A DNA stretch of 64,000 nucleotides, taken from contig KL197729.1 of the NCBI GenBank assembly GCA_000697665.1, forward strand, positions 226,596 to 290,595, in the 5' to 3' direction. This document shows, in pieces, positions 38,748 to 59,947 of the stretch (its first letter is position 1; every line of letters starts with the position of its first letter). The notes beneath the pieces were generated by a model, which was given only the letters and a program-made list of their open reading frames with translations, ran no database searches and was not told the origin of the DNA. The DNA is from Jaapia argillacea MUCL 33604. Taxonomy: Eukaryota; Basidiomycota; Agaricomycetes; Jaapiales; Jaapiaceae. Both the position numbers and the translations under genes were made by a program.

Positions 38748-41700
38748 TCATCGTCTCTTCGGCGCCCGCCTCTGCTTCGCCTTTGGCTTAACAGGCGCCC
38801 TCGGCATAACAGGCGCAGGAGGCAAAACCGGAGGTATAGCAGGTAAAGGTGGCGGCGGAGCATGAGCCACCAAATGCGGTGGCATATTAAAATTGAAATT
38901 GACGTTATACATCGCCGCCAGTTGACCATGAATTGCCATTTGATGATGATGAATATCCGGATACCCAGGGAGTTGAACTTGGATCCCAGGTGGTAATCGA
39001 GCGTACGGGTTCATCGCAGCTTGGGGCACCCCGTGAACGTTGGCAGGTCCGGCTGGTGGGGGAGGAGGCAAGTCCACTTGAAGGTCTTTCTCATCGACCT
39101 CTGGATGGAGTCGTTTAAATTCTTCCATTGCTTTTTGGCGAGCTGCCGTAACCTGCAAATTACGGATTCGATCTTCAACGAAATTCCGAAAAGGTAGAGG
39201 AGAGAATGGAATGTACCTCATCGCTATGTCTTTTCTCGACTGGATCCCACAACTGGCATTTATTGGGGTCCACTCGGCCGTTATAAGGTGGAGGCTGTAA
39301 CGAAGAATATACACAGTGAGACATCGTTGTCGTACATCCATTCCTGAGAATCTCGGACGAAGAGTGACACTTACATTCCCGTAATGTTCGTAACCAGTGA
39401 TGATGTTCCTACACACATAGCAAGACATAGTCGCACAATGTGGACACACCATCTTGTTACACTGCGAAACCGGACGGCGGGGAATGGTAAGCCGAGTGAA
39501 ATACACAAATTACATCTGACATACCCCAGATTCTTTGATGAAACCTAGAGGCAAGCGTCAGAGACAATACGAGAGAAAGATGGACGGAGAACGCTACCTT
39601 TTCCACATTTCGGACAATTCCTCATAAGCGCCTTAGCTACAGGACCAATCAGTATACCGCCGTTTACGAAAAGACCGGTTCAAAATTACTAACACATAGC
39701 CTCCTCAATCAAATGTCTCGCATCCAACGTCTTATCCTCTTCGACCTCTACAAAAACCAGAAAACCATCAGAAAACCGTAGTCACACCACTCAAGGCCGA
39801 TATGAACCCACCTTTACAGCTCTTGGGTAAATGATCCTACATGAGTTGGTCAATGACTGCACATACCCAACGAAGAAAGTAGTCGGAACTCACGGGTTTC
39901 TTACAGGCCCTACAAGTAACAGCACCACAATCAACACCTTCGCACCTAAACAACTTTTCGTCTGGGTTCTCAATCACCACCTACAAGCGACCCTGATCAG
40001 CTTATTGAACTCAAGAACGAAGGATGCCCAGAGGGAGGGAGAAGAAAGACGCATATAGTCAGGATACGATCTCGAGAGCGCGTACAGTCCAGTATCGTGA
40101 TCTCGGGCGCGCATATAGCCACGCCAGAGCTCCAGTACGCATCTCGATAGCACATATAGTCACTCCAGGGGACGCATGTAGTCCAGTATCACGATCCTGA
40201 GAGCATATACCCTCTCACCGAATCTCGAGAACGCATACAGGCCCGACATGACCCCCCAAGTCCACACAACCTCGACATCCAAATTCAGCATTCGATAAGA
40301 AATACGACAGACCTTATACTCGCAATACGGACACTCCTCCAACCCTTCCAACCCCGCACTCTCTATTTCCTTCCGGGCTTTAACACGTTCGTAAAGACCT
40401 AGTAATTTCTCGGGTAGGAACCTATTTTCGGTATGCGGGTTAGGATGTTTTGGTGAAGGAGGCAGACGAAATAGTATGAATGCAAAGGAAGGGGACATAC
40501 CGACGTAGCTCGCCCTCTGTGAAACGCATCTTACAACCACTCTGGTCCATACAAACTATATTTGCGTTTTGACTTCCTAACCTATCAGAAACGTACGACG
40601 TCATACAGTCTGTGCAGAATAGGTGGGCTTCGGGACATTGGATAAGCTTTTCCTGTGGGGTGTGGGGCGTTAATGGGTATCGCGGGAGGAGTGAGGACCA
40701 ATGAAGGCACAAGAGGAAAGAGGAAAGAGGACGTACGAAGGGATAATCCGAAAAACAACATCCACACTCCATCCCATCTCCATCTCCATCCCTCATTCCT
40801 ACATCTGCCTCTCCTGCCTTCTCCTTGCCCTCATCACTTCCCGGCTCCTCGCCTGACTCTCTAATCCCCCTAATCCACTCAACCTCCAACTCCAACTCCT
40901 CATCAACCAACTTCCTCCCCTTTCCCTTGCCCATATTCCTATTCCTATTCTTTTTCTCCACATATGGTAAAGGGGGTTGGCCAACTCCTCCTTGCTCTCT
41001 GGCTTGTTTTGCTAGGAAGAGATAAGTGGGGGCGTAGAGGGCGTTGTTTTCGATGAATGTACGACTGATGTGGGGTTTAGGGATAAAAGGAAAGTCGGAT
41101 TGGAGTTGCTCCTGTATCAAATCCCACGTCAATCGTTGGATAGAGATAAATCAAGGGGAACAAACATACCATTGCGAGGATAGGATAATTAATCCCAGCA
41201 TTCCTCTGCCTATCCTTACTCCCAAAATCAACTCTAGGTTTCTTCGGCGAGCTTCCCTCTCCCGCAGCTTCTTCTTCAGCATCAATCCTAACCCTCTTCC
41301 CTTTACCCTTCGTATCAACCTTGGGATAATCAGGGTTCTCGAAGAGTAAATGCAAGATATGTTCGACGAGGTTATCGGGGTGAGTTGGGAAGTATTGTTC
41401 GAGGAGGGTTAGGACGTGGGTAGGTTGGACGTCTGGGATTATTTCGAGGATGAGGGCGAGTGGGTGGGAGAGTGGATCGGGGTCGATTTCAGGTTCGAGT
41501 TGGGCGGGTGGTGAGACAGGGATTTGTTGTTGAGCGTTGGGAGGAGAAGGTGCTCTGATGAGGGGAGGAGTCTGAGGACGAACGGCACTGGGGCCTGGGG
41601 CCTTCCAACCATCCCTCTCGTCGTCGCTCTCAGGCAAGAACAGAGGAAACGGTCGCGGCTTGGAAGGAGACTTGGAATTTGATGAACCAGGGATCGCACC

Positions 41701-42024
41701 AATGCGAGAAGGACCAGCAGCAGGAGTAGCAGTGCGCGAAACACCAGCAAGAGGACCACTAGCCATTCCGAACGGCGTCACTTCACGCGCCTTCCCCTTC
41801 CCCTTCCCCTTCGCTTTCTCCTTGCCAGGATTTCGTGCCGATGGACGTTCAGGCTCAGAATCGCTACTGATATCTATGATATCCTCTGGTCGGAAAGCTC
41901 GCATTTTGGCTTTCGAGAGACGAGTGGGGGTGGAGTGCTTCCCAACCGTGCGTGGACGTGAACGACGACCAGGATGGGAGAGTAGCTCGGGTTCGGGAGA
42001 GGAGGATATTTCGATAGTTTCCAT
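38748..42024 (-). CDS. RNF216/TRIAD3-like RBR E3 ubiquitin ligase, 761 aa
   Basis: A 12-exon model, all junctions in frame: complement(42024..41170, 41111..40737, 40652..40501, 40421..40313, 39980..39894, 39836..39812, 39747..39694, 39636..39598, 39544..39525, 39461..39375, 39294..39217, 39152..38748). The N-terminal 285 residues are acidic and disordered (IDISSDSEPERPS is a SUMO-interaction-like acidic stretch). RING1 begins ECGCCFSDYPFEKLIQC and ends near DQSGCKMRF. The IBR runs from ECPYCEYKVVIENPDEK to CRACKKPDHLPKSC. RING2 is NCPKCGKGFIKESGCNKM followed by CPHCATMSCYVCR. The Cys in SGCNKM is the expected catalytic residue that accepts ubiquitin from E2 as a thioester. The order and spacing are those of RNF216. 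The tail is Pro-rich and basic. One intron is unusually long and repeat-filled, and one exon is only 20 nt. Confidence 0.9.
39981..40312. repeat. Minisatellite-like repeat inside an RBR-ligase intron
   Basis: The intron between exons 4 and 5 is about 330 nt while its neighbours are about 50-100. From about 40050 to 40240 it holds a degenerate direct repeat of roughly 30-45 bp: CAGTATCGTGATCTCGGGCG, CAGTACGCATCTCGATAGC, CAGTATCACGATCCTGAGAG and GAATCTCGAGAACGCATA, each followed by CATATAG/CATACAG-like sequence. Confidence 0.65.
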
Positions 42025-42492
42025 TATGATGGGCGATGTTGAGGATGATACAGTGCTTTCTTGTGATATGAGACAAATGAGACAAACGCGTGGTGAAGAA
42101 TAACAGGGAGTTTGGTGGACCTTGACGCGGTCTTCGGGAGACCGCGTTCTGGACTTCAAGTTGTCCTTCAACCCTTCACATCAATGCCCGACTCGCTGGA
42201 TGAAAGGATGAGTGTGGTGACCAACAAGAGGCAAACGGGAACGCGATACCCAAGCATTCCATTTCAAAATCCTTTTAAAATCCTTATTATCCGTTGCGGC
42301 CAAGCCGTATGTCAGATATTACATTCTAAGTTAATTGGGTCCAAGTCCCGTATTTCGTCTATCTAAACAAAGGCCTATGGTGGGCGCGATCTACGAAACC
42401 ATGCTGAGGCACGGTGGATTGAAGAGTGGTAAGACATCTGCAACTACCCTAAGCCCGGACATTTCCAAAACTCTTCTCGAACCGTTTGGTAC
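42025..42492. other. Intergenic between RBR ligase and zinc-finger fusion
   Basis: About 470 bp on the same-strand path from the stop of the zinc-finger gene to the start of the ligase gene. It holds an A/T-rich stretch near 42265-42310 and no recognised gene. Confidence 0.4.
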
Positions 42493-44728
42493 CTATGATG
42501 AAGTTGACTTGGGGCTCGAAGGCAACTGGGCATGTGAGCCGATAACGGACATCGTGTTGGAGGGTATGGTCCCAAGTATGTCGTTGCCAGGTATATGCGG
42601 GGCACTGGGGTAGTAGGTAATGCTGGTCGGTCTGCTCGTGCTCGCCGCAAGCTGGGGTGACAATCCACTAGTAGTCCCACCCGTACAGGCTTGGCTATCG
42701 ATGTGCCGCGTCAGGGTATCAGTTCTCCCAAAGTTCTTCCCGCAACCAGAACATACATTCCTCGGGCGAGATTCCGGTGACGCATGATGGCTTTCGTAGT
42801 GACGCTTACGGTCGTACTGGCGCCCGAATGACGAACAACAGAACTGACAGGCGTACTGTTCTGGGGCTAACGATGACGATGACGAAGCAGCGGGAATTTG
42901 GACCGCGCTTGGGCGCGCTTGCGTCGATTGGGCTCCCCGTGTAGACTGGGCAGCCTGATTAGAACGGAACTCGTGCGCCCGGGCGGGGGTGGCAACGAAT
43001 TGGGTAGGGGCTATGTGGTACTGTTGATTTGGGTACGTGTGACGGGTACTGTGCTGGGAGGATGGCATACGGTATGAGGGAGCGCTATGAGATGACTGTT
43101 GTGCGCCGGTGTACGGGCTGGGAGCAAGGCCAATGGTGTCTGCACACGCGGGTGGGACAGAATTCCCCCGCGCTCCAAGTGAGGCTGAGGGCAAGGCCCT
43201 CGACGGCTGGGCGACGGCTGGCTCGACAAGCGGATGTTAGCGCAGAATACAACATCCTGGTGAGCGAATAGACATACCGAAATCTGAGGAGCTGCACTTG
43301 GTTTCCTCCGGGAGGCAGGTGGATTCCGATTTAGCACCTTCGCCAGATTCCCTGACAAGACTTCCAACTACATTGAGACATTAGAGATGAATACGAGGAC
43401 GCGAGATATCACATACCGCCATTTTCAACAACAACGGCAGGACGTGTCACCTCCAATGCCAACCGTATCTGTTCTTCATTGCCATACCTCTGTCAAACTC
43501 GCGATCAGAGATATTTTAATTTAGATGCAGGAGGACACATACTTGGGTGTAGGGCCAGATATCTTCATCATGCGCAATGACGACATCCGCATCCGTATGC
43601 TAATAGCTAGATCTGGGTGAGAGTGTCATCAAGTTAAAACGTGTCTCACCCTGAGCAAATGATCCAGAAGTGGAAGTAAAAGGTTCAAGTCCTAAACAAG
43701 GTGGTTAGTTGCTCAGAGACGATAACAATGAAACTCACTAACCTTTGGAATCTCCGACAGGGGCATGATCTCGTCCTCTGTTTCACCCCCCTCACATGGC
43801 ACAGCTGTATCGCCCTGCTCGGGTCCTTCGTGGCCAAGATTTTGTGGGTCCGCCGCAGCCTCAATCACTTTTGGTCCCAAAAACCTCCTTTCCATCACTC
43901 GATAACCGCGTAAAAAGACGCATTGGTTGCGATCATCCTCTTCTGAACCATCGGGATTCGAAGAACCTTGCGCCTTGGTACCCAGGAAAGACGGTTGTGG
44001 GCCCGAATGATGATGGACAAAGCGACTCGTGGACCATCCTCCACTTAATGAGAACTTCGCAGAAACCCCACCGGGGATGCCCGCACCAAAGCTCCCAGAA
44101 GCTCGGACATCGCTATTACTGAATGCAGCCATGGCCCACTTTGTTGTCATATGACATCCGGTGACGAGGACGAGATCAGAGACCTTGATCTCACATCCGC
44201 ATTGGTGGACCGCGAATTCGTACCAAGATCGATAGTGCTTCAGCATGTGATCCTTGAACATCTTGGGGTAAAAGGCATCTTCACGATGAGCAGAATCGGG
44301 TAACACCAAAACCGCGCCCTTCTCTTTAGTGCACGAAAAGGTTAATTCCGCGTGCGCCTTCCCGCTGGAGAGAGGTTTGAACTCGTTAGGTAGGTCCTAG
44401 ATGGATGAACTTACCCATCGACCGACGCAGATGCCGACAGCTCTTGAACGCTCTCAGAATGGTATGCCCCCGGAGGAAGGGGGCTCTTCACGCGCAGAGG
44501 ATCCCCAGGGAGAACTAGACGCTCGAAATCATGCGGTACACCCCATCGAGAATGTGAAGAATCCTTCGCTTCTTTTAGGACATTGAAAAGTGGTGTGAAA
44601 GCCCCGTCGTCGAAGTAGCCCACGTGGCCGATCTCAACGCGCTTGTAAAGGCCATTGGGGTGAGGATCCCAGACAGCGTGACCAAGCTTGAGAACGGCAA
44701 GTCCAGTCCTGAATATTTCGGAGGCCAT
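42493..44728 (-). CDS. Uncharacterised fungal domain fused to two zinc fingers (640 aa)
   Basis: Seven exons join in frame: complement(44728..44415, 44364..43743, 43691..43650, 43599..43543, 43489..43417, 43367..43278, 43217..42493). Residues 1-360 form a domain shared with the gene at 54218. It starts MASEIFRTGLAVLKLGHAVW, continues VEIGHVGYFDDGAFTPLFNV, HYRSWYEFAVHQCGCEIKVS, LVLVTGCHMTTKWAMAAFS and a Gly/Phe-rich FVHHHSGPQPS part, and ends with VVIAHDEDIWPYTQ. I know relatives as unnamed Agaricomycete proteins; the function is unknown. A Ser/Gln/Pro-rich linker leads to finger 1 (YACQFCCSSFGRQYDRKRHY, C-x2-C-x12-H-x3-H, about residue 521) and finger 2 (VCSGCGKNFGRTDTLTRHID, C-x2-C-x12-H-x5-C). 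It is therefore probably a nuclear DNA-binding protein with a sensing or partner-binding N-terminus. The last intron (60 nt, GCTAAC branch) was chosen because it keeps frame. Confidence 0.8.
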
Positions 44729-47619
44729 TGGTTTCAACGAAGGTAGACTGGAGGTGGGGGTGACAGGTGAGCTGAATTCCTTGATAGACGATTCTCGCTA
44801 AATACCTGAACGAGCGCCAGGAAACTAGGCTGTGCACCTTCGGGCATGCGTCCGTAGCATCTATAGTTCACCAAGAAAGCTCGGTTGCACCAATGGAGAT
44901 GTCGTGACGAAACGGTCAGGTACATTGTTCGACAAGAAAAGCTCGGTTTCACCAATGGAGATGTCATAAGGTCAGGCATCGGAATGGCGAGATTTGCGTC
45001 CTCCACAATCGTCAGATAAGTTGAAAGTTCAATCTCAGCTTCGCATTCCAGCCAGTGTCAATCCGCTGATCGTTGATCTGGGGCGATACACCAAAATCCC
45101 CTCCATCGCCAGATTGAGTGTTCCACGATGCTGATGCGATGCTGTGGATTCCAAGTAGCCAGTCACAGTTTTGCCACAATGACGGTCATGCAGCAGCAGC
45201 AGCTCGATGATGAAAGCCAAGACGATGATCTTGAAGGCAACATCTCGGAGGTACGACTTCAAGTTCCAGCCAACTCAACTTCGAGCAAGCTCGTAATTTT
45301 CGCAGGCCCGGGCCGGAACCCAGACTCTTCTGAATACCAGTCGGCCAGCAAAGCGTGGTCTCACTGGTTCACTGGTGGGCACGATTGATACGTAGTGCAG
45401 ACACGCTGTATATGTGAGATTCTTACGTCGGTCTAAGGATCGTCTTGGAGGTAATTGTTCGCGGGAGTTTACATGGCAGGAATTCGCTGCAGTTCCAGAA
45501 TAGAGAACTCTGGCGATCGACTCGCTGACCTTGACCTCGCGACGCGTGCACAAGGATCCCACTACATCGAAATTGTGACTAAGGTGCAAGACTCGACGCC
45601 ACCATTTTCACAGAAGTAGATACTGTATCTCGCCAATTCTGCGAGTCCCGACGAGAGTGTTCTATCGCCGGACGAAACTCCTGCTGTCCAGGAAATATCC
45701 AGCGGAGGGCAAGATTCCTAGATACAACAACGCGATAAAGATCGTGGCCCTGTAGATGACGGCTGTTGAAAAAAGATTGAAGGAGTAAGCAGGTACACCG
45801 GTCCAATGTAACACGAGACTAAACCACCAAGGAAGCAAAGCAGCGCACCGAAGGGAATGAATGCACTGGGCTTACCAGCATCTGGGCCGATCAAAATGTG
45901 TCCAAGACGATGCCCAACACGATTAGATTGAGAACCAGTAAATCCGAAAACGACGATGCTCGGTATGTCTTCCACTCTAGAAATCTCCCACACGGATCCA
46001 GTGCCGAGCATCGCCACTGGCATATCGGAGTGATCCTGTTGAATTTTGCATTGAATGATAAGCCCATTGTCCAGAGAAGCCCAATCCAAAAGGACACCTT
46101 TGGTGAGCAATTGAGTAGGACAATGTCGAAGTTCAACCTCCGTGACTGGCACAGTACCAGTACTGATCGTCGGTACAGGTATACCGAAAAAAGTGATATT
46201 GGCTGATCCACTTCACTCGTTCTCAGAAATGGGGGGGGGTAAAAAGAGCACCCCGATCAAACTGCGGGTTGGGACAGATAGCTGGGGATCAGCGATAATA
46301 GAGTGTATCTGCACGTAGGATATCCTAGCGGAGTAGCCAATCTGGTTGCAGAAAAGCTCGAAAATTTCCTTTCTCGTTATTCCAAAGTGTAGGATATCCT
46401 AGTGCAGATACACTCTAATGGAGAGTAAACAAAATGGAAAGGCACTGGTTCATCCCGGGTCCTTTACAGCGATGAAGGCTCGTATGGTAAGGGACAATCC
46501 ATCCTGTACACGTGAAGACTTCTCGACCACACGGTCCAAAGATCCCAGGGAAAGCTGTGTAGTTAAGGCACCCCACCAAAAGTGCCAATCTGCGTTGATG
46601 TCGGGGGTTAAGTTTACTGTGCGGCGTCTAAGAATTTGGAAAAGAGGCTGTTCATGCTCTGTAGTCAATCCCGCCCACGGACCTGGTGTCGGGGATGCTG
46701 TGATAGCTGATAAGATACCAAGTGCAATTGAACTATATTGACGACCAAGTCTGAGTGGAACGTGGATACGCAGGAGTGAGTGCGATGATGGAGAGGTGGG
46801 TCCATATCGGTCCACTCATCCAAGGACCAGTATTCCCACACCTTCGTAGACCTTCCCACACTCAGAATCGGATTGATGTTACAACAAATATTTCTTTTCT
46901 TCTCTTTTTCCTACTACTGTACATACATGTCTGCATACTGCATAAGTCGATGGCAATGGGAGGTTGATACACTAAAAGGGACATTGAACCTGGCGATGGT
47001 GGGGTGGGATGAAGGTACGGCGTGGTCTAAGGGATTAAGAAAGGGCGAAGTTGGTCGATCGATCGGGATGGCGGGCATTTGGTGTGAAGGTAAGGGGGTG
47101 AAGCGGGAATAAGAGAAACGACCGAAAAGATGAAGCAAAGCAAAGACGTTAAGATACTTTCGAAAAGCAAATATCGAAATAAGACTAAGTACTCCAGAAC
47201 AATATGAAATCATAAATCAAGGCCTGAACATCGTCAACAAATGCAAAGCGTCCACGTCGCGCAAAGTAAGGGTGTAAAGAGAAGCCAGGGATGGAACCGA
47301 GAACGATGGAAGAAATAGACGTCTGGTTCGAGGCGAAGGTGTGGGGGGTGGAGTGGGTGGGTGATAGGGGATACAGTCCGGGTTTTTGGTTTCGATTATG
47401 CTTGGGGTGGTGTTATAGGTGGTGGTACTGATACAGTCTATGATGGGGTCCGGTCGAAGGTCATGATTGAAAGTAAGAGGCATCGAAGGGGGGTATTGGA
47501 AGTTCGTCTTCACGCGTCCTCGGAAAAAATATATGGTTTTCGACGTTTGTTTGAGAAGGGTCCAGCTCGTCTCTCGCGCGTCTTCATCGGCCTCTCCTAG
47601 AAGGAACAACAACAACAAC
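44729..47619. other. Mostly non-coding region with small repeats
   Basis: No confident gene in about 2.9 kb. Minus-strand frames (for example 46152 to 45718, with a hydrophobic end) lack an ATG and family features. A 45-50 bp direct duplication (44871-44920 and 44932-44976, both containing CACCAATGGAGATGTC) lies in the upstream region of the zinc-finger fusion. A run of nine G is at about 46231. A 115-bp inverted-repeat element is listed separately. Confidence 0.45.
46301..46415. mobile_element. 115-bp TA-flanked inverted-repeat element (MITE-like)
   Basis: The left end GAGTGTATCTGCACGTAGGA and the right end (reverse complement) GAGTGTATCTGCACTAGGAT match over about 26 bp with one indel. TA flanks both sides (46299-46300 and 46416-46417), as expected for a TA target duplication of the Tc1/mariner-like class. 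The 60-bp middle (about 46328-46389) has no coding capacity. The small size, terminal inverted repeats and TA flanks make a non-autonomous element the best reading. A single copy was seen in this window. Confidence 0.6.
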
Positions 47620-48561
47620 TCATCTCGTCCCCCCATAAACCCTCATCTCAACGACTCCCAAACCCTTCGGCGTCTTCTCAAACCCAGCAAACATCGTTCT
47701 CCCAACCAACCAGTCAACCCTCTTAACACCCTTCCTCCGTTCCTCCTCCTTCTCCGCATCACCCCCTCGAACCCTCCTATACCTCGCCCTCCAGCTCTCT
47801 TCCACCTCATGCCTCATCTTCTTGTCCAACCCATCGTACTCGCCCCTGTTCACCGGCGTCCTCAGACTACTATAGATTTGATGGAGGACGTCGGAGACGG
47901 TGACGTAGGGGTATGGAGAGGATGGAGGTGGAGCGATAGTGATAGGCCAAGGAAGTGGGGGGCAGAGAATGTGGAGGGAGGATAGAGGTGGTTGCGTGGC
48001 TGGGTGATTCAGAGTTTGAAGGGACAAAGCCTGTTTGGTGGAGGTGACGATATGGGATGGAGGGAGGAGGAGATCGTAGTGCAAGGGTGGAGGGTACGGC
48101 GCGAACTGTGCTGAGAAGATGGGATGCAGTTCGTAGTGGTGGGGATCGACGTGTCGAGGTGGAGCCAAACCATGCCCGGCAAGCGGAGGCCGTGATTGGG
48201 CATGGTTGGACTGGTTAGACGATGACGACGATGACGATGGAGAGAAGAGGGCTGCCGCTGCTGGGGGCATGGGTGTATGGAGAAAGGCTTCGTGCTGGGG
48301 AGGGGTTATCGGACCATTTGACGACGCGATAGACGATGCGCACGAGAGGGTCGGCGATGGAGGGATATACACGTCCCGCTCGGGAGCAAAGTGTACTCGC
48401 TTACTAGGGGCCATTGGCTCGAGGGGTAAGGGAGGAAGAGGTTTGTGTTCTGAAGATGATGAGGAGGAGTTCGAACGCGACTGATTGTGATGATGATGGT
48501 GATGAGGGTTGGCTGATTTATGGGGGGAGTCGGCGGATAAATCAATATCGTCTCTTGACAT
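47620..48561 (-). CDS. DUF6699-domain protein (313 aa)
   Basis: A single intronless frame. The first roughly 165 residues are low-complexity: a His run (NPHHHHHHNQ), Ser runs and Pro-rich stretches. The C-terminal domain starts near PPLSSLHILCPPLPWPITI, continues YVTVSDVLHQIYSSLRTPV and RGEYDGLDKKMRHEVEESWR, then RVDWLVGRTMFAGFEKTPKG, ending in EMRVYGGTR. The hinge V-T-V-x-DV-x-x-x-IY-x-x-LR and the terminal D-W-L-x-R-T-x-F-x-G-x-E motif are shared with the gene at 58422, placing both in one DUF6699 subgroup. Function unknown. The ATG at 48561 is the first in frame, and the frame is intact. Confidence 0.8.
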   Translation of the reverse strand: MSRDDIDLSADSPHKSANPHHHHHHNQSRSNSSSSSSEHKPLPPLPLEPMAPSKRVHFAPERDVYIPPSPTLSCASSIASSNGPITPPQHEAFLHTPMPPAAAALFSPSSSSSSSNQSNHAQSRPPLAGHGLAPPRHVDPHHYELHPIFSAQFAPYPPPLHYDLLLPPSHIVTSTKQALSLQTLNHPATQPPLSSLHILCPPLPWPITIAPPPSSPYPYVTVSDVLHQIYSSLRTPVNRGEYDGLDKKMRHEVEESWRARYRRVRGGDAEKEEERRKGVKRVDWLVGRTMFAGFEKTPKGLGVVEMRVYGGTR

Positions 48562-51500
48562 GGCGGGGTTATTTATATTCGGGGACGCGTCCTATTCTGT
48601 GTGGGTATGGAGTATGTACAGCCTTTTCAAGACTGCAGTGAACAAAGTACTGGGCGGGTTCTTGGAGGAATGGATAAGTGGCTGTTCGTCTTTTGAGCGC
48701 TAGCTGCGGTCGTCGTGGTGCCAGTCGAGAAGGGGATGAGAGAAGAGTCGGTCGATTTTAATCAGGAGCCGAACAAGGGAACCGCGTCCATATAGCAACG
48801 CAGAACTTGTAGCGCCCAAGGCCTTCCTTTATATATCTCCATAGCCTCATCTGGTGTTGGTCTCCAAACCAACAGGGGTATATTATCGGATACGTGTTGG
48901 CTCGCCTTGAGGGAGTCACACGCAGGAGAAACAAGGAGCATCGCCCTCTCCGATGTCGTCAAGTCCAAGTTCGGTAGCCATCTCGTATTTTCTCAGCCGG
49001 GATCTTGACCGAGTATAGCCTTGTTTGCTTGATATGCCAATCAGATGGCTGCACCAACCTCGTGGGTCGTCTGGAAATGGATCGATTGGCCGGCTCTTTT
49101 TACCAGCAATTGTCGTTCGTCGGCCTCGTTGTTATCCCGCGACACTATTTTTCATCAGCACAATCCCGTACCTGTGCATCTCCTCACCCATCACATATTC
49201 ACCACCCCCATCACTCGAGATCCTCAGTTGTTTTCATTGTACTTTCGGAAATCTTCCTCGTCGCGTGTTGGGCGGGGCAACTCATCACACCGGGTCACAT
49301 TGACTCCACTCTTGATCCGGTACTCCTTTGGAATGATTGCATAAAGGGGTTATCGACGGTCAGCACATCCCGTATTGCCTCAACGCTAGTCACCACGGCA
49401 CCCAACCCGCCGTACCTCGTCCCTCCCTCGTCGGACACATGCGCTCCAGACGATTGGCCTATCCGAGCCATTAGCCAACGTTTCACCAACTCGACTGTAT
49501 TCCGCTCGCTGAAACCGCACGTGTGGCTATGCTTCAAGCGCTCAAGCATGTACCTCATGGGCGAAGACCTGCGTGGGAGGCCAACCGAGCATTATCGCTT
49601 CTGGCGTATCTGCACCGACATCACTATACAGTTGATTTTCGAACCAATCGCCGATAGTCTTGATGACACTACGGACTCGCACAATTCCTTATCCCGAAAC
49701 CCATTCTGGTGCGCAGCTTTGCTTCATTTTCAACGATATTAGGTTCAGAATTGACAGAAGCATCCCCAGTAGTCTCTTGGAATGACGGGAGCACACTCGA
49801 CTTGGTTAGAGTCGGGACACGTGGTGAGACCTGATGATACTTTCTTTCATCTAAGGTTTCTCCGGAGCGGTGCATCCGCGCCCTATCTCGCCGACTTTGG
49901 GGTATGGTGAGACAGTAGTCAGGTTCAGCATCGTCATATGCGCCCCACACTTTCAAAGAGTCATCTCCAGTCATGATGGAGGTAAATCCCGGGTCGGCGG
50001 CAAGATGGAGAGGAGCTCGAGTGATTCGAGTCCTTATCCGCTGCGCATCGCTCATATCTTGATCGGGACCGCAAAACGCACTTGGGTTAGCTCCTGCCTC
50101 GCCCTATATCCCCCTAGCTCACCCAACTATTTGCAGAGCACTTCCTTCCACGCCAACCATACCCCAAATCCCACTTCTCCGGTGCAAAACCTCCTCCGGT
50201 CTACTTGGCTCACACGACGTACGCAGTACTCACACTTCTATCCTTATCTTATCTGAATAACCATTCTCACACTCCTTACTTCCATCCACATTCGGCTCTT
50301 ATAGAGCCAAGCTCATCGTCTCCTCGACTTGCCGAACGATATTTGGGACCAGGGCAAAGGGTGTGCATTCTCAGTGTCTGATGAGAATGGTAAGAGATAC
50401 CCACGATGATGGCCATCGAAGTTGATATCTTCCCCTTCCTCCCCCCTGTCTGTCCAAAGGCCATCTCGGCGTCGGACAAGTGCTTTATTGAAGGGAGGCG
50501 GAGGCTGGGATCGATCTGATCAGGTACGGAGGTGATGGGAACCATGTGGTCCGGTCTCTTGGATCCTCTCTTGGTCTTCGTCGGAAGTCCGATCACGGCC
50601 TATCCTCGTCAGCTCTTGTGGACTATTGGACAGCTCTTGATGAACTCTTGGCTTGTCATCGGCTCCTGATCTGTTCACCGTCGCTGTTCACTGCCAAGCC
50701 GCTGTGAAACGGAAGTCCGTTCCATTTCGCTGCACCTTCGGATGGACCAAATTGCCGAATCGTCTGGTGACCAGCATATATGCGCTGGTTTGGTGAACTT
50801 TTGGATCGCCCCTCACCCTGGATGTTTCGGAGTGCTCGGTACCCCAACTCTTTCTTGCATGGGATCTTCTAGCTACCGAGGAAATCCTCTCCGATCGATA
50901 TGTTTTTCGCGATCTCGGACCACTGTCGTTTCAGAAAGCGGTCGTGGATCCCGAAAAGCTTATCCTTCGAACTTTTCCTTCTCCTTGGAAAAATTCCTTC
51001 CAACGTCTTGGATGCTTGGTTAATTCCATTCTCCTAGGTCTCAAAAATACACCCTCCGATCGCGACGGTCCTCATCACTTCTGGTCTGCTGCCCTCATAT
51101 CAGCCGCTTCTGGCTCTTCGTTCATCAGCGTTTGGATAACTTTGGCCCACCTTGCTACGTCCTTATCTGGACAAGACCAACTCGAGTTAGGTCCATTGAC
51201 GTATAGATCACCCCTCCGACTCCCGTCAAACGCAAAGTGACTCGAGATGTCAGAATGGGACGAGGAAGGACCGGCCCGACTGTGCATTCATCTGCCCTTG
51301 CTGTTTGTTTGGCTGAGTTCAGCTCATCCCATCGGACCTTGCCACGTCGTCATTCACACAAGTCCATTCTCGAGTTGGATCCTTTGAGCTATTGATCAAC
51401 CCTCCGACTCCCGTCTTGATCGCAAAGTGGCCTTGAGATGACAGACTCGGACGATGGAGGGCCAGCCCGACAATGCGTTCGGTATTCGTTTCAACTTTGC

Positions 51501-53082
51501 TCTTTCGCCACTATTTCCTATGAGCTTACTCGACCGACCGGCCATGCTTGTGACGGATGCTTTGACTCACGGAAGAACGAAAAGTCGCATCCGGCAAGAC
51601 TCGGGATGGGACCCATACTTCATTTATCACCCCGAGTGTCTACGACCGGCCAAGTATCTCAACAACCGGTGTTAGTATTACGGTCGGTGCCCAACTCTCT
51701 CCTTCCTCCGCGTTTTCCTCACTTCAAGATTCTGTCAGGTTCGGCTGAAATGTGTTCTGGTTTCGTAGAGGTCGAGTCTGGGACTTCTGTATTTCATCTA
51801 TGCACTCCGGAGTGCCCGGGCTGCTCACCTACCTTGCTCGCTGAATAAGGTGTGTCGACGCGCCGCTGCGAAAGCACTTGTTTCGTCTCCTTCGTTTAAG
51901 GTGGTTTGTCAACTCTGGAGTTTGACGCCCACTGCGGATCATAGCCGTCTCACTCGGAATGAGACCCCCAGGTGGAAGCTGCGGGGATACTCAGCTATAT
52001 CAGTCAGCCGAAAGGCCCTTGGCTTGGGGTCTGGTGTTTCCAACCCATGGATCCCGCTCTCTTGTCGAATTCAGGTACCATGATGGTGCACGGTTCGCTG
52101 AGGCCGCGGCATCGCTTACTGTGATGTCGGTTTCCTCTTAGCGAGCTGGTATGACCTTGTCTCTCATCAAGAAATGTCCAAATTTTGACAACTCTAAGTC
52201 AGCCGGGTTTTTTAGACTCTGCAGAGTCGTTTTTGGTCGGACAGGAAGTCATTCCGGATTCTCACTTCAATCCGTCTGCGGTGTGGATTTGCTGGCAGTC
52301 ACTCTGTTAGGGATATCTGTTCCGACGCTCATGGATATCTCCAGACAGACCTTATTCCAGACCGAGGCGAGTGCGAACCTGGGCTTTCTCGAAGGTACGA
52401 TGTTCAGCTCGCTCCACAGGAGCAACTCCCCACTCATTCGGTCCGGAGTGCTCTGACGAAGGGTTTCATTCCTTGCCATAACAGATTTAATTCGCTTGAG
52501 ACTGTATGAGGGGCTGTGCTTCCAGCGACCAAAGTTCACCGCGTGTATATTTGCTGTGTGGGTGACTGACCGAGCTTTTTTATCGTGTTCGGAATACTAA
52601 TACTGACTTGCCTTGATCTTCGGAATTGTTTCATATCACCCTTTGGGTTTGCACTGTTAGTGGATGTCGAACTGGAGGCATTACGTTCGGAACTGACGAG
52701 CAATCTTTCGTGCTGTGCTGGAGAAATTTCGTTTCCCTCCCTTGACAATAGTATGTTTATTGGCTGCCGCCTCCTGTTCCTGTCGTAGCTATCCTTCGAC
52801 GATGTAACTCATTCTTCTCAACAGTGTCCTGTTCTACTAGTAGCAGTCCGACCTTCACCTTGTTCCTTTCATTCCTCACAGTTCAGTGGTGCGTCTAATC
52901 TTGATTCCTGGTTTTCGGTTACCTCGGTAGATATGTACTTTTCGGTCCGCGTTTCATCGAGTCGACTTTTGCAAGTCAACTTGTGAATAGAATATGTGGA
53001 AAACGCAGCTACTTATTCGAATCCTTACTGCATTTAAATAAGATGTGAACTTGCGTGGGAACGATTGGTGCTCCCAAATGCA
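48562..53082. other. 4.5-kb gene-poor region
   Basis: No family recognised. The longest ATG frame is 49077-49742 (listed separately). A minus frame of 128 codons (50055 to 49669) is open but featureless. A diverged tandem duplication of about 190 bp is visible around 51150-51530: both copies contain CCCTCCGACTCCCGTC, then CGCAAAGTG, GAGATG and GCCCGAC. The region may contain decayed genes, but none can be rebuilt with confidence. Confidence 0.45.
49077..49742 (+). CDS. Orphan ORF, 221 codons, low confidence
   Basis: A plus frame starting MDRLAGSFYQQLSFVGLVVI, with one clear hydrophobic stretch (VVFIVLSEIFLVACWAGQLI) and a C-terminal half rich in Trp, Arg and Phe (HVWLCFKRSSMYLMG, HYRFWRICTDITIQLIFE). 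It belongs to no family I recognise and has no obvious introns. The open frame continues upstream without an ATG. It may be a lineage-specific gene, a decayed exon, or chance; a frame this long is uncommon by chance but not impossible in 64 kb. Confidence 0.25.
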   Translation: MDRLAGSFYQQLSFVGLVVIPRHYFSSAQSRTCASPHPSHIHHPHHSRSSVVFIVLSEIFLVACWAGQLITPGHIDSTLDPVLLWNDCIKGLSTVSTSRIASTLVTTAPNPPYLVPPSSDTCAPDDWPIRAISQRFTNSTVFRSLKPHVWLCFKRSSMYLMGEDLRGRPTEHYRFWRICTDITIQLIFEPIADSLDDTTDSHNSLSRNPFWCAALLHFQRY

Positions 53083-53090
53083 CTTAGGGA

Positions 53091-53745
53091 GGGGATAATG
53101 CTATCCAGAAACCCAGGTTAAGAGAGAAACGACCAAGTCAACGAAAGCTGAGCAAAGTCAGGGAGGGTTGTTGATCTCGGAGCCCAGGGGTTTCGGGCGG
53201 TGTCAAGCCCGAGGGTGCCTACTGTAGTTCTAGCGGAGGAAGATTGATGCTGGGATTGGCCGAGAACTTCGCTACACTGCGAGCACCTGGTGGCAACAGC
53301 GCCGACGTCGTTTGGCACGGAGTCGCGCTCGTCGCTGTGGACAGCGGGCAGCGGCTTGCTCACCGAAAGTCGAGAGGATTGGAAGCCATTCCAACAAACT
53401 GCATTTATATGTCGCATTATCACCAACTATACAAAATTTTCAATCAATTTGTTTTTGCTTTTTGATGTTGTCGACAACGACGAGTGTGACTACTTCGCCG
53501 CCGTGCCAAACGACGTTGGCGCCGTTGCCAACAGGTGCTCGCACTGTAGCGCTTCTCGCCCAATCCCAGCATCAATCTTCCTCCGCTAGAACTACAGTAG
53601 GCACCCTCGGGCTTGACACCACCCGAAATCCCTGGACTCCGAGATCAACAACCCTCCCTGATTTTGCTCAGCTTTCGTTGACTTGGCCGTTTCTCGCTTA
53701 ACCCGGGTTTCCAGCAGAAACTGGGGTTTCTGGACAGCATTATCC
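53091..53745. mobile_element. 655-bp foldback element with 8-bp target duplication (hAT-like, non-autonomous)
   Basis: Two long inverted arms (about 53091-53343 and 53473-53745) are reverse complements with scattered differences; the right arm carries an extra block of about 18 bp near 53705-53725. The ends read GGGGATAATGCTATCCAGAA and, reversed on the right, GGATAATGCTGTCCAGAA. CTTAGGGA flanks both sides (53083-53090 and 53746-53753), an exact 8-bp direct repeat like the target duplications made by hAT-type transposases. The roughly 130-bp centre and the arms have no transposase. It is therefore a non-autonomous DNA element that would fold into a long hairpin. Confidence 0.75.
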
Positions 53746-54217
53746 CTTAGGGACCCACAACATCATTCGAGTTGTTACTTTGTTCCCTCTACAAAACAGC
53801 CTACGCACCTAAAGAGCTGAGTTCAACGCGAATGGATCCTAGCTTTAGCCGAGCATGGCGTACGTGTAATTGTCGAACGTCTGATTCTGGCAACCCACTC
53901 ACGCCCGTCGGTTGTTGAGCGGGATGGCGATCCAATTATTAATGCTGATAACACTAACAACGTCAACTGCGACGATCTCAAACGGCCTTGGCGGTACGTA
54001 TTGCAGTGCACTGGTGCCTTCCATTGGTTAATCTCAGACGGAACAAATGGACATCAGACAGGGAATTTTCCTGAATGGGCTCTGCAATATTGGGATGTCC
54101 GGGGATGCGCACAGGATTTGACAGATAGACGCTCTCGTATAAGTACTGAACGGCTCCTCAGTGACTGCTACCATTCTCATTCCGTCCAACGTCATCCTGT
54201 AGCCCACTCTACTACCG

Positions 54218-56483
54218 ATGGCCTCAGAGATCTATAGGAGCGAGTTGGCTATCCTCAAGCTTGGCCACGCCGTCTGGGATCCAAATCCGAATGGCGAATA
54301 CGAACGTGTTCGCGTCGGTGATGTTGGGTATTTTGAAGATGGCGCCTTTATCGTGCTCTTCAATGTACTCCCAGCTACCGAATCTCAGTCCCAATCGAAG
54401 TGGGGCTTTCCAGAAGATTTCAAGCCTTTGGTGCTTCCCGGCCGTGCCGTCCGCGAGAAGAGCCCCCTTGTCCCAGGGCCGTATCACTCTGAGAGTGTAC
54501 AAGAAGTTTCCGCTTCTGCATCTATGACCAGGTAAGTTCCACCACTACTTTCTGTGGTACAAGTATACCTCATCGTCTTCGCCTTCTAGCCCCTAAGGTC
54601 AAGCAGAATTATCTTTTTCCTGTAGCAAAGAGAGAAGTGCAGTCCTTGTCCTCCCTGGCTTCGCACGCCGCGAAGAAGCCTACTTCCGGAAAATGTTTAA
54701 AAATTATATGCTGGAAAATTATCGCAGCTGGTTTGATTTTGCGGTCGACCAGTGTGGCTGCGAAATTGAAGTTTCGGATCTTATTCTTGTCACAGGTTGT
54801 GACTTGACTACGCAGTGGGCAATGGCGGCGTTCAGTACCACAGATGTTCGAGCGTCTGCTAGCGTCGGTGGTCAGGTTCCTGGGGCTATATCGGCGAAGT
54901 TCTCATTGAAGGGGGGTTGGACTACCACTCGTTTCGTCCACCATCACTGGGGTCCTCAGCCTTCAAGATGGATGACGAAGGCACCAGAAACACCATCCTC
55001 TCAGCCCACGGACAAGCTTCCGGATCAGTGCGTATTTCTTCGGGGTTACAGAGTCAAGGAGCGGCGATTTCTTGGACCAAAAGTTATTGAGGCGGGAGCA
55101 GGACCCCACGATATCGGAGGTTACAGCCCTGAGGATGGAAATACGAAGGTGTACAGCACAGATAGCGACTCTAATGAGGAGGTGGAGTCACTGTCTGATA
55201 CACCAAAGGTAACTTAACATTCACGTGTTGCCTTGGAAGGAACTGAAGGTCAGCCTTGCAGGACATCAACCTCGTGCTTCCTTTGTTGGATCACTTGCTG
55301 GAGGTGATAAAGGCTCCCCTCCTCCGTCGATCGAGACTGAAGATGCATTTTGACCCAGCACTCAGATTCCTCTGTCGTGATCGCCCACGATGAAGACATC
55401 TTCCCATATATTCAAGTGAGTGATACTCATTCTTGCGTCTTTTGTTGATGAGATCGACAATGGTCGTAGAGTGGAGTTGGCGTGGAGGGTATGCGCTCGG
55501 CATTGGAGAAGGAACGACCACGCATTACAGTTGAAGCCGGCTGTGTGTATCTAATACTTTGTGGTCCAGACTCCTCCTGAAATTTTGAGCGCATAGGTGG
55601 GATGCTTCATGAGTCCGCTCAAGAAACTCTCGATTTCCCTCTCCCTTCAAACCTACCCCTGGCGATGAATGATGACATATCACGTGAAGACAAGTGCACG
55701 ATCGTCATTCCTCCCTCTGCGTATAGTTTCCCCTCCCACTCTCACAAAGTTCCGCCACTGCCTTCCTTGGAGCGCGAACATAGAGCCGTGACTTTTGTCG
55801 GCTTCGTCGGTACTAAGGACCTTGTTGGAAGAAACGAGTATGCCGGCTTCGATGCTCTGCGCGAGGCTCCTGGACGGCCAATATCGCATGAGAAGGCCAC
55901 TCTCCACGATCCACAAATAACACTACCTCTCCAACCATCTTCGCTGGCATCGGTTGAGTCAAACTATTCGACGGAGTCATCATCTTCGTTTGATCACAAG
56001 CGCCGAGGGTCATCCCACTCGATCTGCAGCGACATCAGCGCTGCATCGAACGAGCCAAGGAGGCCCAGGGAGGGGGGTGGCGATCATATCAAGCCACCGG
56101 AAAATGCCTTTATTCCTTTCCTCCGAAAGTGCCGTGAAGAAAGAGAGAACTTATTACAACAAGGAGAAGAGGCTGCTGGCGCGGACGGCATCCAGAATGA
56201 GAGGCCGCGGCACACCGATCTAACCAAGACGATCGGTTTGCAGTGGGAGAGCCTTTCTCCTGAAGAACTCGCTCGCTTAGAAGACCTCACCAAGGAGAAG
56301 AAGAAGGAGCACGAGAAGATGTACCCCGACTACATGTACAGCCCTCAGCGGTCGAAGGGGGGATGCAAGACGTCAGGAAAGGGGGGAGGGACGGCTTACG
56401 ATGATCAAGTATTTGCCGAAGAGGCTGTGGGTGTCTATTCTCGATGTGATCCATATATCCTAACGTCTGCTATCCTTCCATAG
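54218..56483 (+). CDS. Uncharacterised fungal domain fused to an HMG box (651 aa)
   Basis: Six exons join in frame: 54218..54531, 54626..55208, 55262..55303, 55359..55415, 55470..55542, 55597..56483. Residues 1-360 are a clear paralogue of the N-terminal domain at 42493-44728. Exons 1, 3, 4 and 5 have exactly the same lengths (314, 42, 57 and 73 nt), and motifs such as ILKLGHAVWDPNPNG, LILVTGCDLTTQWAMAAFS and VVIAHDEDIFPYIQ are shared. After a Ser/Pro-rich linker an HMG box follows at about 522-607: IKPPENAFIPFLRKCREE, an insertion rich in Gly/Ala/Glu, then LTKTIGLQWESLSPEELARL and KKEHEKMYPDYMYSPQR. It is probably a nuclear DNA-binding regulator. The 3' end is ambiguous: a tandem GTGT donor at 56431/56433 allows splicing into the membrane-protein exons that begin only 12 nt after the stop. 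Confidence 0.8.
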
Positions 56484-58421: not shown

Positions 58422-59947
58422 TTAATAAGTCCCCAAGAACATTATCCACGTCCCATCTTTACTTGGGTGAGGCTCCAACCCCCTAAACATCGTCCTATCC
58501 AACATATAATCCACCCTCGTCAGCCCATCACGAGGAGAGACCGCACCCTCCACTTCATCATCTCCACTCCACCTCGGCCTCCTCCTCTCCTCCTTTATCC
58601 TCTTAAAATACCTCTCCTCAACCAACCTCTTCCTCCTCTCCATCATCCCATCATACTCCTCCCTCTGCAAAAACTCCCTAAAATTCTCATAAATACGATC
58701 AAACACGTCCCGTATCGTCACCCCTCTCCGATTATGCACTCTTATAGGCCAAGGCCACGGATTAGCACAATCGTCGGCTACGCCTGATATACACATCAGA
58801 CTGACGAACGGGTAAGTGGCTGGTTGGGCAAAGTCGCCTTCCATTAGAGGGATAAGGTTCTGGGTGGTTGAGAAGAACGTCGCGTAGGGTGGTTGGCCGA
58901 TGTCGAAGGTTATACAGGGTGTGCCTTGTGGCGTGTGAGATAGGTATGGGTTAAGTTGGCATTCCCAGGGAGGAGGATGGGTCGTTGATGAGGATATTGG
59001 TGGGTGGGGAGGTTTCGACCAGAGGGAAGGCCGACGAGGGAGGGATGGGTGTTGCAGGTTTGGTATCCAGCGTTCGGGGTGTGGCGAATCATTAGGACCC
59101 CGAAGAGAACGGAAGACTTGCACAGGGTCGATCGGGAGATCGGACGTTGGTGGTCGGGGCGCTAGCGAATAAGACAAAGTTTAGGTTTAGTGGTTCAGGG
59201 TGGAAGAGGGGGATAGTCCGAAGAAATTACGATAGAAGGATGGATGAGGAAGAATGAAGGAAGGGTCGCGGAAAGCAAAGAAGCATGGATCATGAATGTA
59301 TTGGAAGGGGTAAACGGTAGCAGTAAAGGAGATGGATACGAACTTGCGTTGCGCACAACTCCGACTCCGCGTATGTAGGGTCGCGCCCAATATCCATACT
59401 CTTTCCAGGCTTCTGGTGGTATTGGATTCCGACGGATGGTCCGCGATAACTGATCATCATATCGAACCCCATCATTCCCGTCGACAACGAGGTTGGCATT
59501 ACGCCCGTATCGACGGCTGTCGATGGAATTGGTATTGGAGGAGGAAGGAGCCGTGCTACGATGGTCCGAACCGTTTGTGCTCGGATCTGCAAGATCCCGA
59601 AACGCAATGAGCAACTGCAGTACGTAAAGATTGAGCAACAAAGGAGCGGATCGCCACTCACCGAATAGATGTCGCAGTCGCCTAACAATCCCAAACTTGC
59701 CCCATCTCCGTCTACTTTGTCGGAATTCCTGTCCTCCATCCATCATATCCGCTCTGCTCTGCGTTCTATCGGGCTCAAAATAGCGATCACGAGAATTTAT
59801 CGATGGATCCAACGCAAAGGAGGCAAGTTCGAGGGGTAGCGAGTTCAGAGACTGAGCTGTTGTCGTTGGTGGTGATGGGATCCAGGGTTGATGCGGAACC
59901 ACAATCCGACTACCCACTGCATGTGGTGGGATGCCAGGGAATGGCAT
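58422..59947 (-). CDS. DUF6699-domain protein, three exons (422 aa)
   Basis: Spliced model complement(59947..59662, 59586..59344, 59161..58422), every junction GT-AG and in frame. The first two exons encode a Ser/Pro/Arg-rich, probably disordered region (MPFPGIPPHAVGSRIVVPHQ onward, with a Trp/Arg-rich RRRWGKFGIVRRLRHL helix). Exon 3 carries the domain: CITFDIGQPPYATFFSTT, WPWPIRVHNRRGVTIRDVFD, RIYENFREFLQREEYDGMME, then RVDYMLDRTMFRGLEPHPSK. The V-T-I-x-DV-x-x-x-IY hinge and RVDYML-x-RT-MF-x-G block align with the 47620 gene, so these two are closer to each other than to the 19303 gene. Function unknown. The start at 59947 is the first ATG of the frame. Confidence 0.8.

What the first reader, a model, noticed from the sequence alone, without database searches (positions are those of the whole stretch)
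42493..56483. One uncharacterised domain fused to two different DNA-binding modules in paralogous genes
The genes at 42493-44728 (minus) and 54218-56483 (plus) share a roughly 360-residue N-terminal domain. Exons 1, 3, 4 and 5 are identical in length (314, 42, 57, 73 nt), and intron phases match up to the exon after EN/EAG. They then diverge completely: one carries a C2H2 plus a C2HC finger from about residue 521, the other an HMG box from about residue 522. This looks like domain swapping on a common sensor or partner-binding module, giving two regulators with the same input and different DNA targets. The shared domain is common in Agaricomycetes as unnamed proteins, and I know of no assigned function. 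The exon data are seen in the sequence; the regulator idea is inference.
Basis: partly seen in the sequence, partly recalled or inferred. Interest (0 to 1): 0.85.

Follow-up and report, generated by a model that had tools for sequence, protein, structure and literature searches.

The report
Fungal protein module that swaps tails
Two neighbouring fungal genes share one old, unnamed front half but carry different DNA-binding tails that look like recent copies of pieces of other genes in the same genome, and related genes carry still other tails, most often a protein kinase.

Summary
Genes A (42493-44728, minus, 640 aa) and B (54218-56483, plus, 651 aa) share an N-terminal module of about 370 aa with matching exons (314, 42, 57, 73 nt) and phases, then end in C2H2+C2HC fingers or an HMG box. 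One correction: B's conserved exon-2 start runs into an in-frame TAA, so B needs a later acceptor that drops a conserved stretch, or is broken.

The scope was too narrow. Twenty places in this genome encode the module. Of 19 checked, 8 have a kinase downstream, 2 C2H2, 1 each HMG, DUF6699, WD40 or coiled coil; in 5 nothing was recognised. The module is not specific to transcription factors.

The tails look captured. Most of A's finger exon plus the intron before it is 85% identical in DNA to a gene elsewhere that lacks the module; the match starts within 2 nt of the splice donor. B's HMG stretch is 82% identical to another such gene. Both are far younger than the A/B split. A's fingers keep their metal ligands. 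B's HMG box has 19 private changes against 3 in its relative and is probably decaying, so "two regulators with different targets" is doubtful for B. The module's fold and function stay unknown.

The parts
44415..44728 (-). gene A exon 1 (314 nt), start of the shared N-terminal module
43743..44364 (-). gene A exon 2 (622 nt), core of the shared module
   Evidence: paralogues
43650..43691 (-). gene A exon 3 (42 nt)
43543..43599 (-). gene A exon 4 (57 nt)
43417..43489 (-). gene A exon 5 (73 nt, exits in phase 1)
43278..43367 (-). gene A exon 6 (90 nt, exits in phase 1)
42493..43217 (-). gene A exon 7: low-complexity linker, C2H2 and C2HC fingers (residues 521-577), then a tail not seen in the C16 or C4 copies
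42677..43279 (-). intron 6 plus most of the finger exon, 85% identical to a locus on contig C16 and 80% to one on C4; the match begins at the splice donor
54218..54531 (+). gene B exon 1 (314 nt)
54626..55208 (+). gene B exon 2, open model; the homologous start would be 54590 and meets an in-frame TAA
55262..55303 (+). gene B exon 3 (42 nt)
55359..55415 (+). gene B exon 4 (57 nt)
55470..55542 (+). gene B exon 5 (73 nt, exits in phase 1)
55597..56483 (+). gene B exon 6: linker, HMG box, short tail
55950..56408 (+). stretch holding the HMG box, 82% identical to part of an HMG frame on contig C41

Best explanation
The shared front half is the conserved, probably regulatory, non-catalytic module of a family scattered through this fungal genome and often followed by a protein kinase. 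Copies of it acquire new coding tails, in A, B and C21d after a phase-1 intron that follows a 73-nt exon. Gene A gained a zinc-finger tail and gene B an HMG-box tail as copies of fragments of other genes in the same genome, long after the A/B duplication. The DNA similarity is shown; the direction of copying is inferred from the 5' parts that the C16 and C41 loci have and A and B lack. Most likely way of working (inferred): the module senses or docks to something in the cell and the tail sets the output, phosphorylation in the kinase forms and DNA binding in A. B's DNA-binding output is probably already failing.
For: Twenty places encode the module. A kinase frame lies downstream on the same strand, starting within about 2.1 kb, in 8 of 19. 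With 163 kinase matches in 43.7 Mb about 0.5% of sites would have one within 2.5 kb by chance, or 1.5% if all 525 first-look candidates were real (own arithmetic; no opposite-strand or random-site control was run). The best 18-row tree needs 8 changes of tail type (5 is the least possible for six labels), and the group A, B, C21d (92/98) holds three different tails. Tandem copies C4a, C4b and C4c match from the module into the kinase, and C4c alone holds a 1-kb repeat block between. C21d can be joined in frame, after a 73-nt phase-1 exon, to one long frame holding DUF6699. A's tail matches the C16 locus from the donor on, phase 1 on both sides, and the C16 locus has an upstream reading frame that A lacks. 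Module A-B: pN 0.21, pS 0.87, so old and constrained; fingers A-C16: dN/dS 0.17 (0.05-0.49).
Against: No transcripts were available. The joins to kinase, WD40 and C21c's fingers were not modelled. In 5 of 19 copies no tail was recognised, so an ancestral kinase is only a guess, and the tree's root is a midpoint. C4c's module model has an in-frame stop and lacks its start, so the repeat-bearing copy may be dead. In the fingers A has 7 private changes against 0 in C16 (p 0.016), and A's linker shows no constraint (1.39). Shuffled labels need as few changes in 36 of 200, so tails are hardly clustered on the tree. Nothing here shows sensing or docking.
Confidence: 0.5

Rival explanations
1. The captured tails are passengers. 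The module is the working protein and random gene fragments become attached and decay, so A and B are not regulators.
For: B's HMG box has 19 private changes against 3 in the C41 gene (p 0.00086), with R to P, L to P, R to L and W to L at places identical in its two relatives. B's exon-2 start meets a stop. The module itself is constrained. The C4 copy of the finger stretch holds a stop, and module copy C4c has an in-frame stop.
Against: A's fingers keep all ligands and show dN/dS 0.17 against C16. B's HMG fragment as a whole is at 0.30, though much of that may come from the C41 branch.
Confidence: 0.3
2. Each locus is two adjacent genes, and the fusions are artefacts of joining exons by eye.
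For: No transcripts. Fusion artefacts are common in helminth annotations (PMC12964723, title and start of abstract seen).
Against: A's finger stretch starts at the splice donor and lacks the C16 locus's upstream frame, with only a 60-nt intron before the finger exon. B's tail is one open frame of 300 codons in the right phase. C21d allows the same kind of join.
Confidence: 0.08
3. The module is a membrane-acting or cell-death effector, gasdermin-like, and the tails restrain or trigger it.
For: By eye the order of strands, one long helix, strands and the DLVLVTG...W..AAF and QCVFLRGYRV motifs recall gasdermin N-domains (recalled, not tested). Fungal gasdermins are a widespread family (PMC10197012, passages seen).
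Against: No convincing match in Pfam, PADLOC, NCBIfam or PDB sequences (best weak hits E 0.14 to 0.92 to unrelated names). The gasdermin Pfam model finds nothing in this genome, but rang in no control either. The fold prediction failed at pLDDT 33.
Confidence: 0.1

Closest known systems
Tyrosine-kinase-like (TKL) kinase expansion of Laccaria bicolor (PMC2838846, abstract and passages seen)
   Same: Kinase tails match PK_Tyr_Ser-Thr or Pkinase, and this genome has 163 PF07714 matches.
   Different: The passages seen say nothing of this N-terminal module, and A and B carry no kinase.
Gene-fragment capture by Helitrons in Pleurotus ostreatus (PMC4289320, title and start of abstract seen)
   Same: Pieces of resident genes are copied elsewhere in a fungal genome and make new combinations.
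   Different: Transposon ends round A's or B's stretch were not examined; the A junction sits at a splice donor.
Modular fungal NLR proteins with diverse effector domains (PMC9815663, passages seen)
   Same: One kind of module combined with many partners; WD40 and TPR partners are typical of NLRs (recalled).
   Different: No nucleotide-binding domain was sought here; kinase tails are the commonest.
Fungal gasdermins RCD-1 and HET-Q1 (PMC10197012, passages seen)
   Same: Only a by-eye resemblance of motif order.
   Different: No profile match; the passages describe a short inhibitory C-terminal part, not kinase or DNA-binding tails.

Membership tests
C2H2 zinc-finger protein (gene A) | paired Cys and His/Cys metal ligands | tested here: met
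   C-x2-C-x12-H-x3/4-H and a second C2HC finger, ligands the same in the C16 and C4 copies
C2H2 zinc-finger protein (gene A) | Pfam zf-C2H2 model above its cut-off | tested here: not met
   18.8 bits against 25.2; zf-C2H2_4 22.7 against 27
HMG-box protein (gene B) | Pfam HMG_box above cut-off over the full box | tested here: inconclusive
   28.5 (300 aa) and 34.1 bits (box alone) against 25.4, but only profile positions 28-68 of 69; HMG_box_2 16.2 and 20.3, below 22.4. The C41 box scores 43.8 and 28.8 and also aligns 28-68 in HMG_box
HMG-box protein (gene B) | first-helix and later residues identical in both relatives (RPENAFILFRR, W) | tested here: not met
   B reads PPENAFIPFLR and W is L
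Gasdermin | sequence profile match | tested here: not met
   none of 12 members matches gasdermin at E<=1 in Pfam
Gasdermin | N-terminal fold | tested here: inconclusive
   model of exon 2 at pLDDT 33
TKL-type kinase family with this module | kinase domain in the same gene | tested here: inconclusive
   kinase frame within about 2.1 kb, same strand, in 8 of 19; module and kinase alike together in C4a-c; no transcripts
TE-captured gene fragment | transposon ends or target-site duplication round the fragment | not tested
   a repeat scan of 42000-46000 (25 nt or longer) showed one 28-nt direct repeat pair upstream of A and no inverted repeats; ends were not examined
Fungal NLR | NACHT or NB-ARC domain | not tested
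   no search was made for it

The most novel reading that the evidence does not exclude
An undescribed plug-in module of mushroom-type fungi, ancestrally tied to kinases, repeatedly trades its output tail at one phase-1 intron. This genome would then catch the step from signalling kinase to one-protein transcription regulator, in which the same input is rewired by copying the DNA-binding exon of a resident regulator.
Probability: 0.25. Interest if true: 0.8.

Novelty: new variant of a known kind. Interest (0 to 1): 0.55.

Why it matters
New domain combinations are usually inferred across species with the donor long gone. Here apparent sources for both tails sit in the same genome, the joint in A lies at a splice site, and the module is kept while tails change. 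That makes it testable whether tail capture really rewires a regulator or is mostly noise. It also flags a module without any Pfam match in a family where kinase is the commonest partner found.

Tried and rejected
Tried without gain: a 2OG-Fe(II) dioxygenase model, PF20515, as an early guess from memory (nothing, and no control rang, so uninformative). Profile of 12 modules against PDB sequences: one hit at E 0.92, taken as chance. Relatives in viral contigs: none of 151 stretches confirmed. Relatives in prokaryote genomes: one short hit in a Lokiarchaeota MAG, 42 query residues at 37%, taken as chance and not followed. AlphaFold2 on the exon-2 pieces of A and B: pLDDT 33, no fold search made; the second job was not used. 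Synonymous changes in the HMG box were not polarised because the C21 HMG outgroup is saturated.

Rejected: that equal exon lengths show a special A-B relation; that the module is specific to DNA-binding proteins; that the palindrome near B explains its tail (it lies 5' of the gene).

Limits and dropped rows: C40b and C40c are partial and were left out of the tree (18 of 20 rows), where C58 was put under 'none found'. C40c was left out of the kinase count (19 of 20) because a run of N follows it. C57 is a long branch of unsure place. Of the copies without a recognised tail, I gave Pfam only pieces of C6 and C8; C20, C40b and C40d were checked by the kinase profile and by eye alone. Module searches score only the best candidates, so other copies may exist, also near the C16 and C41 loci.

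Papers: nine searches were made; four were aimed at such fusions or shuffling. One search found no paper; in the listings of the others I saw nothing on this module. That is no proof that it is unpublished.
Full report
What is there. I rebuilt both genes from the sequence. Gene A has seven exons and 640 aa; gene B has six and 651 aa; every intron is GT-AG. Exons 1, 3, 4 and 5 are 314, 42, 57 and 73 nt in both, and the exit phases of exons 1-5 are 2,0,0,0,1. The first 279 residues are 67% identical. A's fingers and B's HMG box both begin at residue 521.

A flaw in B. By homology B's exon 2 should start at 54590, as A's does, but that frame meets TAA at its third codon (SP*GQAELSFSC). A later acceptor, with exon 2 starting at 54626, keeps the frame and gives an open 651-aa protein, but removes a stretch well conserved in the family (AELSFSC). 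B may be spliced differently, newly broken or mis-assembled; I cannot tell which.

The family. Searches of the window's own genome (43.7 Mb, 95 contigs) with A's module and with two divergent copies gave 20 places in all: A, B, two more on the same contig, three in tandem on C4, four places on C40 (two partial), two on C10, and single ones on C6, C8, C20, C27, C39, C57 and C58. Fifteen alignment columns are invariant among 12 members. No convincing match was found in Pfam, PADLOC or NCBIfam or in PDB sequences. The copy C4c has an in-frame stop and lacks its start.

Tails. For 19 copies I scanned up to 5 kb downstream on the same strand (for six copies less, down to 1.2 kb, where the locus ended) with a kinase profile built from six of them. 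It finds kinases in 8: C10, C10b, C4a, C4b, C4c, C39, C27 and C40a; C4c and C27 were not in the training set. Pfam kinase models match the pieces I gave from seven of the eight, in C4b below cut-off; for C4c a Pfam kinase match lies at the expected place in the genome scan. The others: A and C21c have C2H2 fingers, B an HMG box, C21d a DUF6699 domain, C57 WD40 repeats, C58 a coiled coil seen by eye (no Pfam hit), and five (C6, C8, C20, C40b, C40d) nothing recognised. With 163 kinase matches in the genome, a same-strand kinase within 2.5 kb is expected at about 0.5% of sites (own arithmetic; 1.5% if all 525 candidates count). I ran no random-site or opposite-strand control.

Evidence that tails belong to the same gene. 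The three tandem C4 copies are alike from the module through to the kinase, and C4c alone carries about 1 kb of repeats between the two (L017 6292-7303); Pfam's TPR models match part of it below cut-off. C21d can be joined in frame, by a 58-nt GT-AG intron after a 73-nt phase-1 exon, to one long frame that holds DUF6699 (465 codons counted from exon 5; one of several possible joins). C21c also fits the 73-nt phase-1 exon, but its join to the fingers was not modelled.

Sources of the tails. A's tail, from 43279 to 42677, matches C16 at 85% and C4 at 80% in DNA. The match includes intron 6 and begins within 2 nt of the splice donor; both loci are in phase 1 there. The C16 locus has its own upstream reading frame, which A lacks, and no module hit was reported there. 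B's stretch 55950-56408 is 82% identical to part of a longer HMG frame on C41. C21c's fingers resemble five finger loci about 19 to 72 kb away on the same contig, and others elsewhere. C21d's DUF6699 is closest to four others on the same contig, one of them in this window.

Timing and constraint. Between A and B the module has pN 0.21 and pS 0.87, saturated: old and constrained. A's tail against C16 has dS 0.20 over the exon (0.38 in the fingers, 0.12 in the linker; few sites); B's stretch against C41 has dS 0.47. So both captures look younger than the A/B split. The fingers proper have dN/dS 0.17 (bootstrap 0.05-0.49), the linker 1.39 (0.77-3.41). B's HMG fragment has 0.30 (0.17-0.47), the box alone 0.39 (0.18-0.76). 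Private amino-acid changes: in the HMG box B 19 against C41 3 (p 0.00086); in the fingers A 7 against C16 0 (p 0.016); in the module A 30 against B 23 (p 0.41). B's HMG changes include R to P, L to P and R to L in the first helix and W to L later. I read this as a decaying HMG box; fast adaptive change is not excluded.

Tree. The best tree of 18 copies (two partial ones dropped) needs 8 changes of tail type; C2H2 needs two; A, B and C21d, each with a different tail, form one group at 92/98 support. Labels shuffled at random do as well in 36 of 200, which fits frequent turnover but also means the tree says little about order. Kinase occurs on both sides of the midpoint root, so a kinase ancestor is plausible but not shown.

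How it probably works. Shown: a constrained module, changing tails, similar loci in the same genome. Inferred: the module takes an input or docks to a partner and the tail gives the output. Kinase as the commonest partner speaks for signalling. A would be a DNA-binding form. B probably was one or never worked.

Novelty. Fragment capture and domain shuffling are known kinds; gene capture by Helitrons is described in Pleurotus (PMC4289320, title and start of abstract), and expanded TKL kinases in Laccaria (PMC2838846, abstract and passages). I know of no name for the module, and four paper searches aimed at such fusions showed nothing on it in their listings.

Noticed in passing
window 53108-53711: A long palindrome: arms 53108-53266 and 53553-53711 (159 nt, 95% complementary) with inner arms of 56 nt, about 0.5 kb upstream of gene B; looks like a foldback element.
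   Followed up: partly
window 47620-48591 and 58422-59180: Two DUF6699 genes on the minus strand near A and B; three more lie about 12 to 26 kb right of the window, and DUF6699 is also the tail of module copy C21d.
   Followed up: partly
window 40440-42180: Minus-strand frames with RING-like cysteines, weak C3HC4 matches below cut-off in the 40440-41150 frame; perhaps a RING-type ubiquitin ligase gene next to A.
   Followed up: no
window 44876-44965: A 28-nt motif repeated once at 62-nt spacing just upstream of gene A's start.
   Followed up: no
L035 4493-5635: The C4 copy of the finger stretch holds a stop and is preceded by part of another, locally repeated gene frame, so it too looks chimeric.
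   Followed up: partly
L037 5294-6337: Another HMG-box frame with an intact-looking box about 5 kb right of the window on the same contig.
   Followed up: partly
L017 6292-7303: A 1-kb block of TPR-like repeats present in only one of three tandem module-kinase copies; that copy's module has an in-frame stop.
   Followed up: partly
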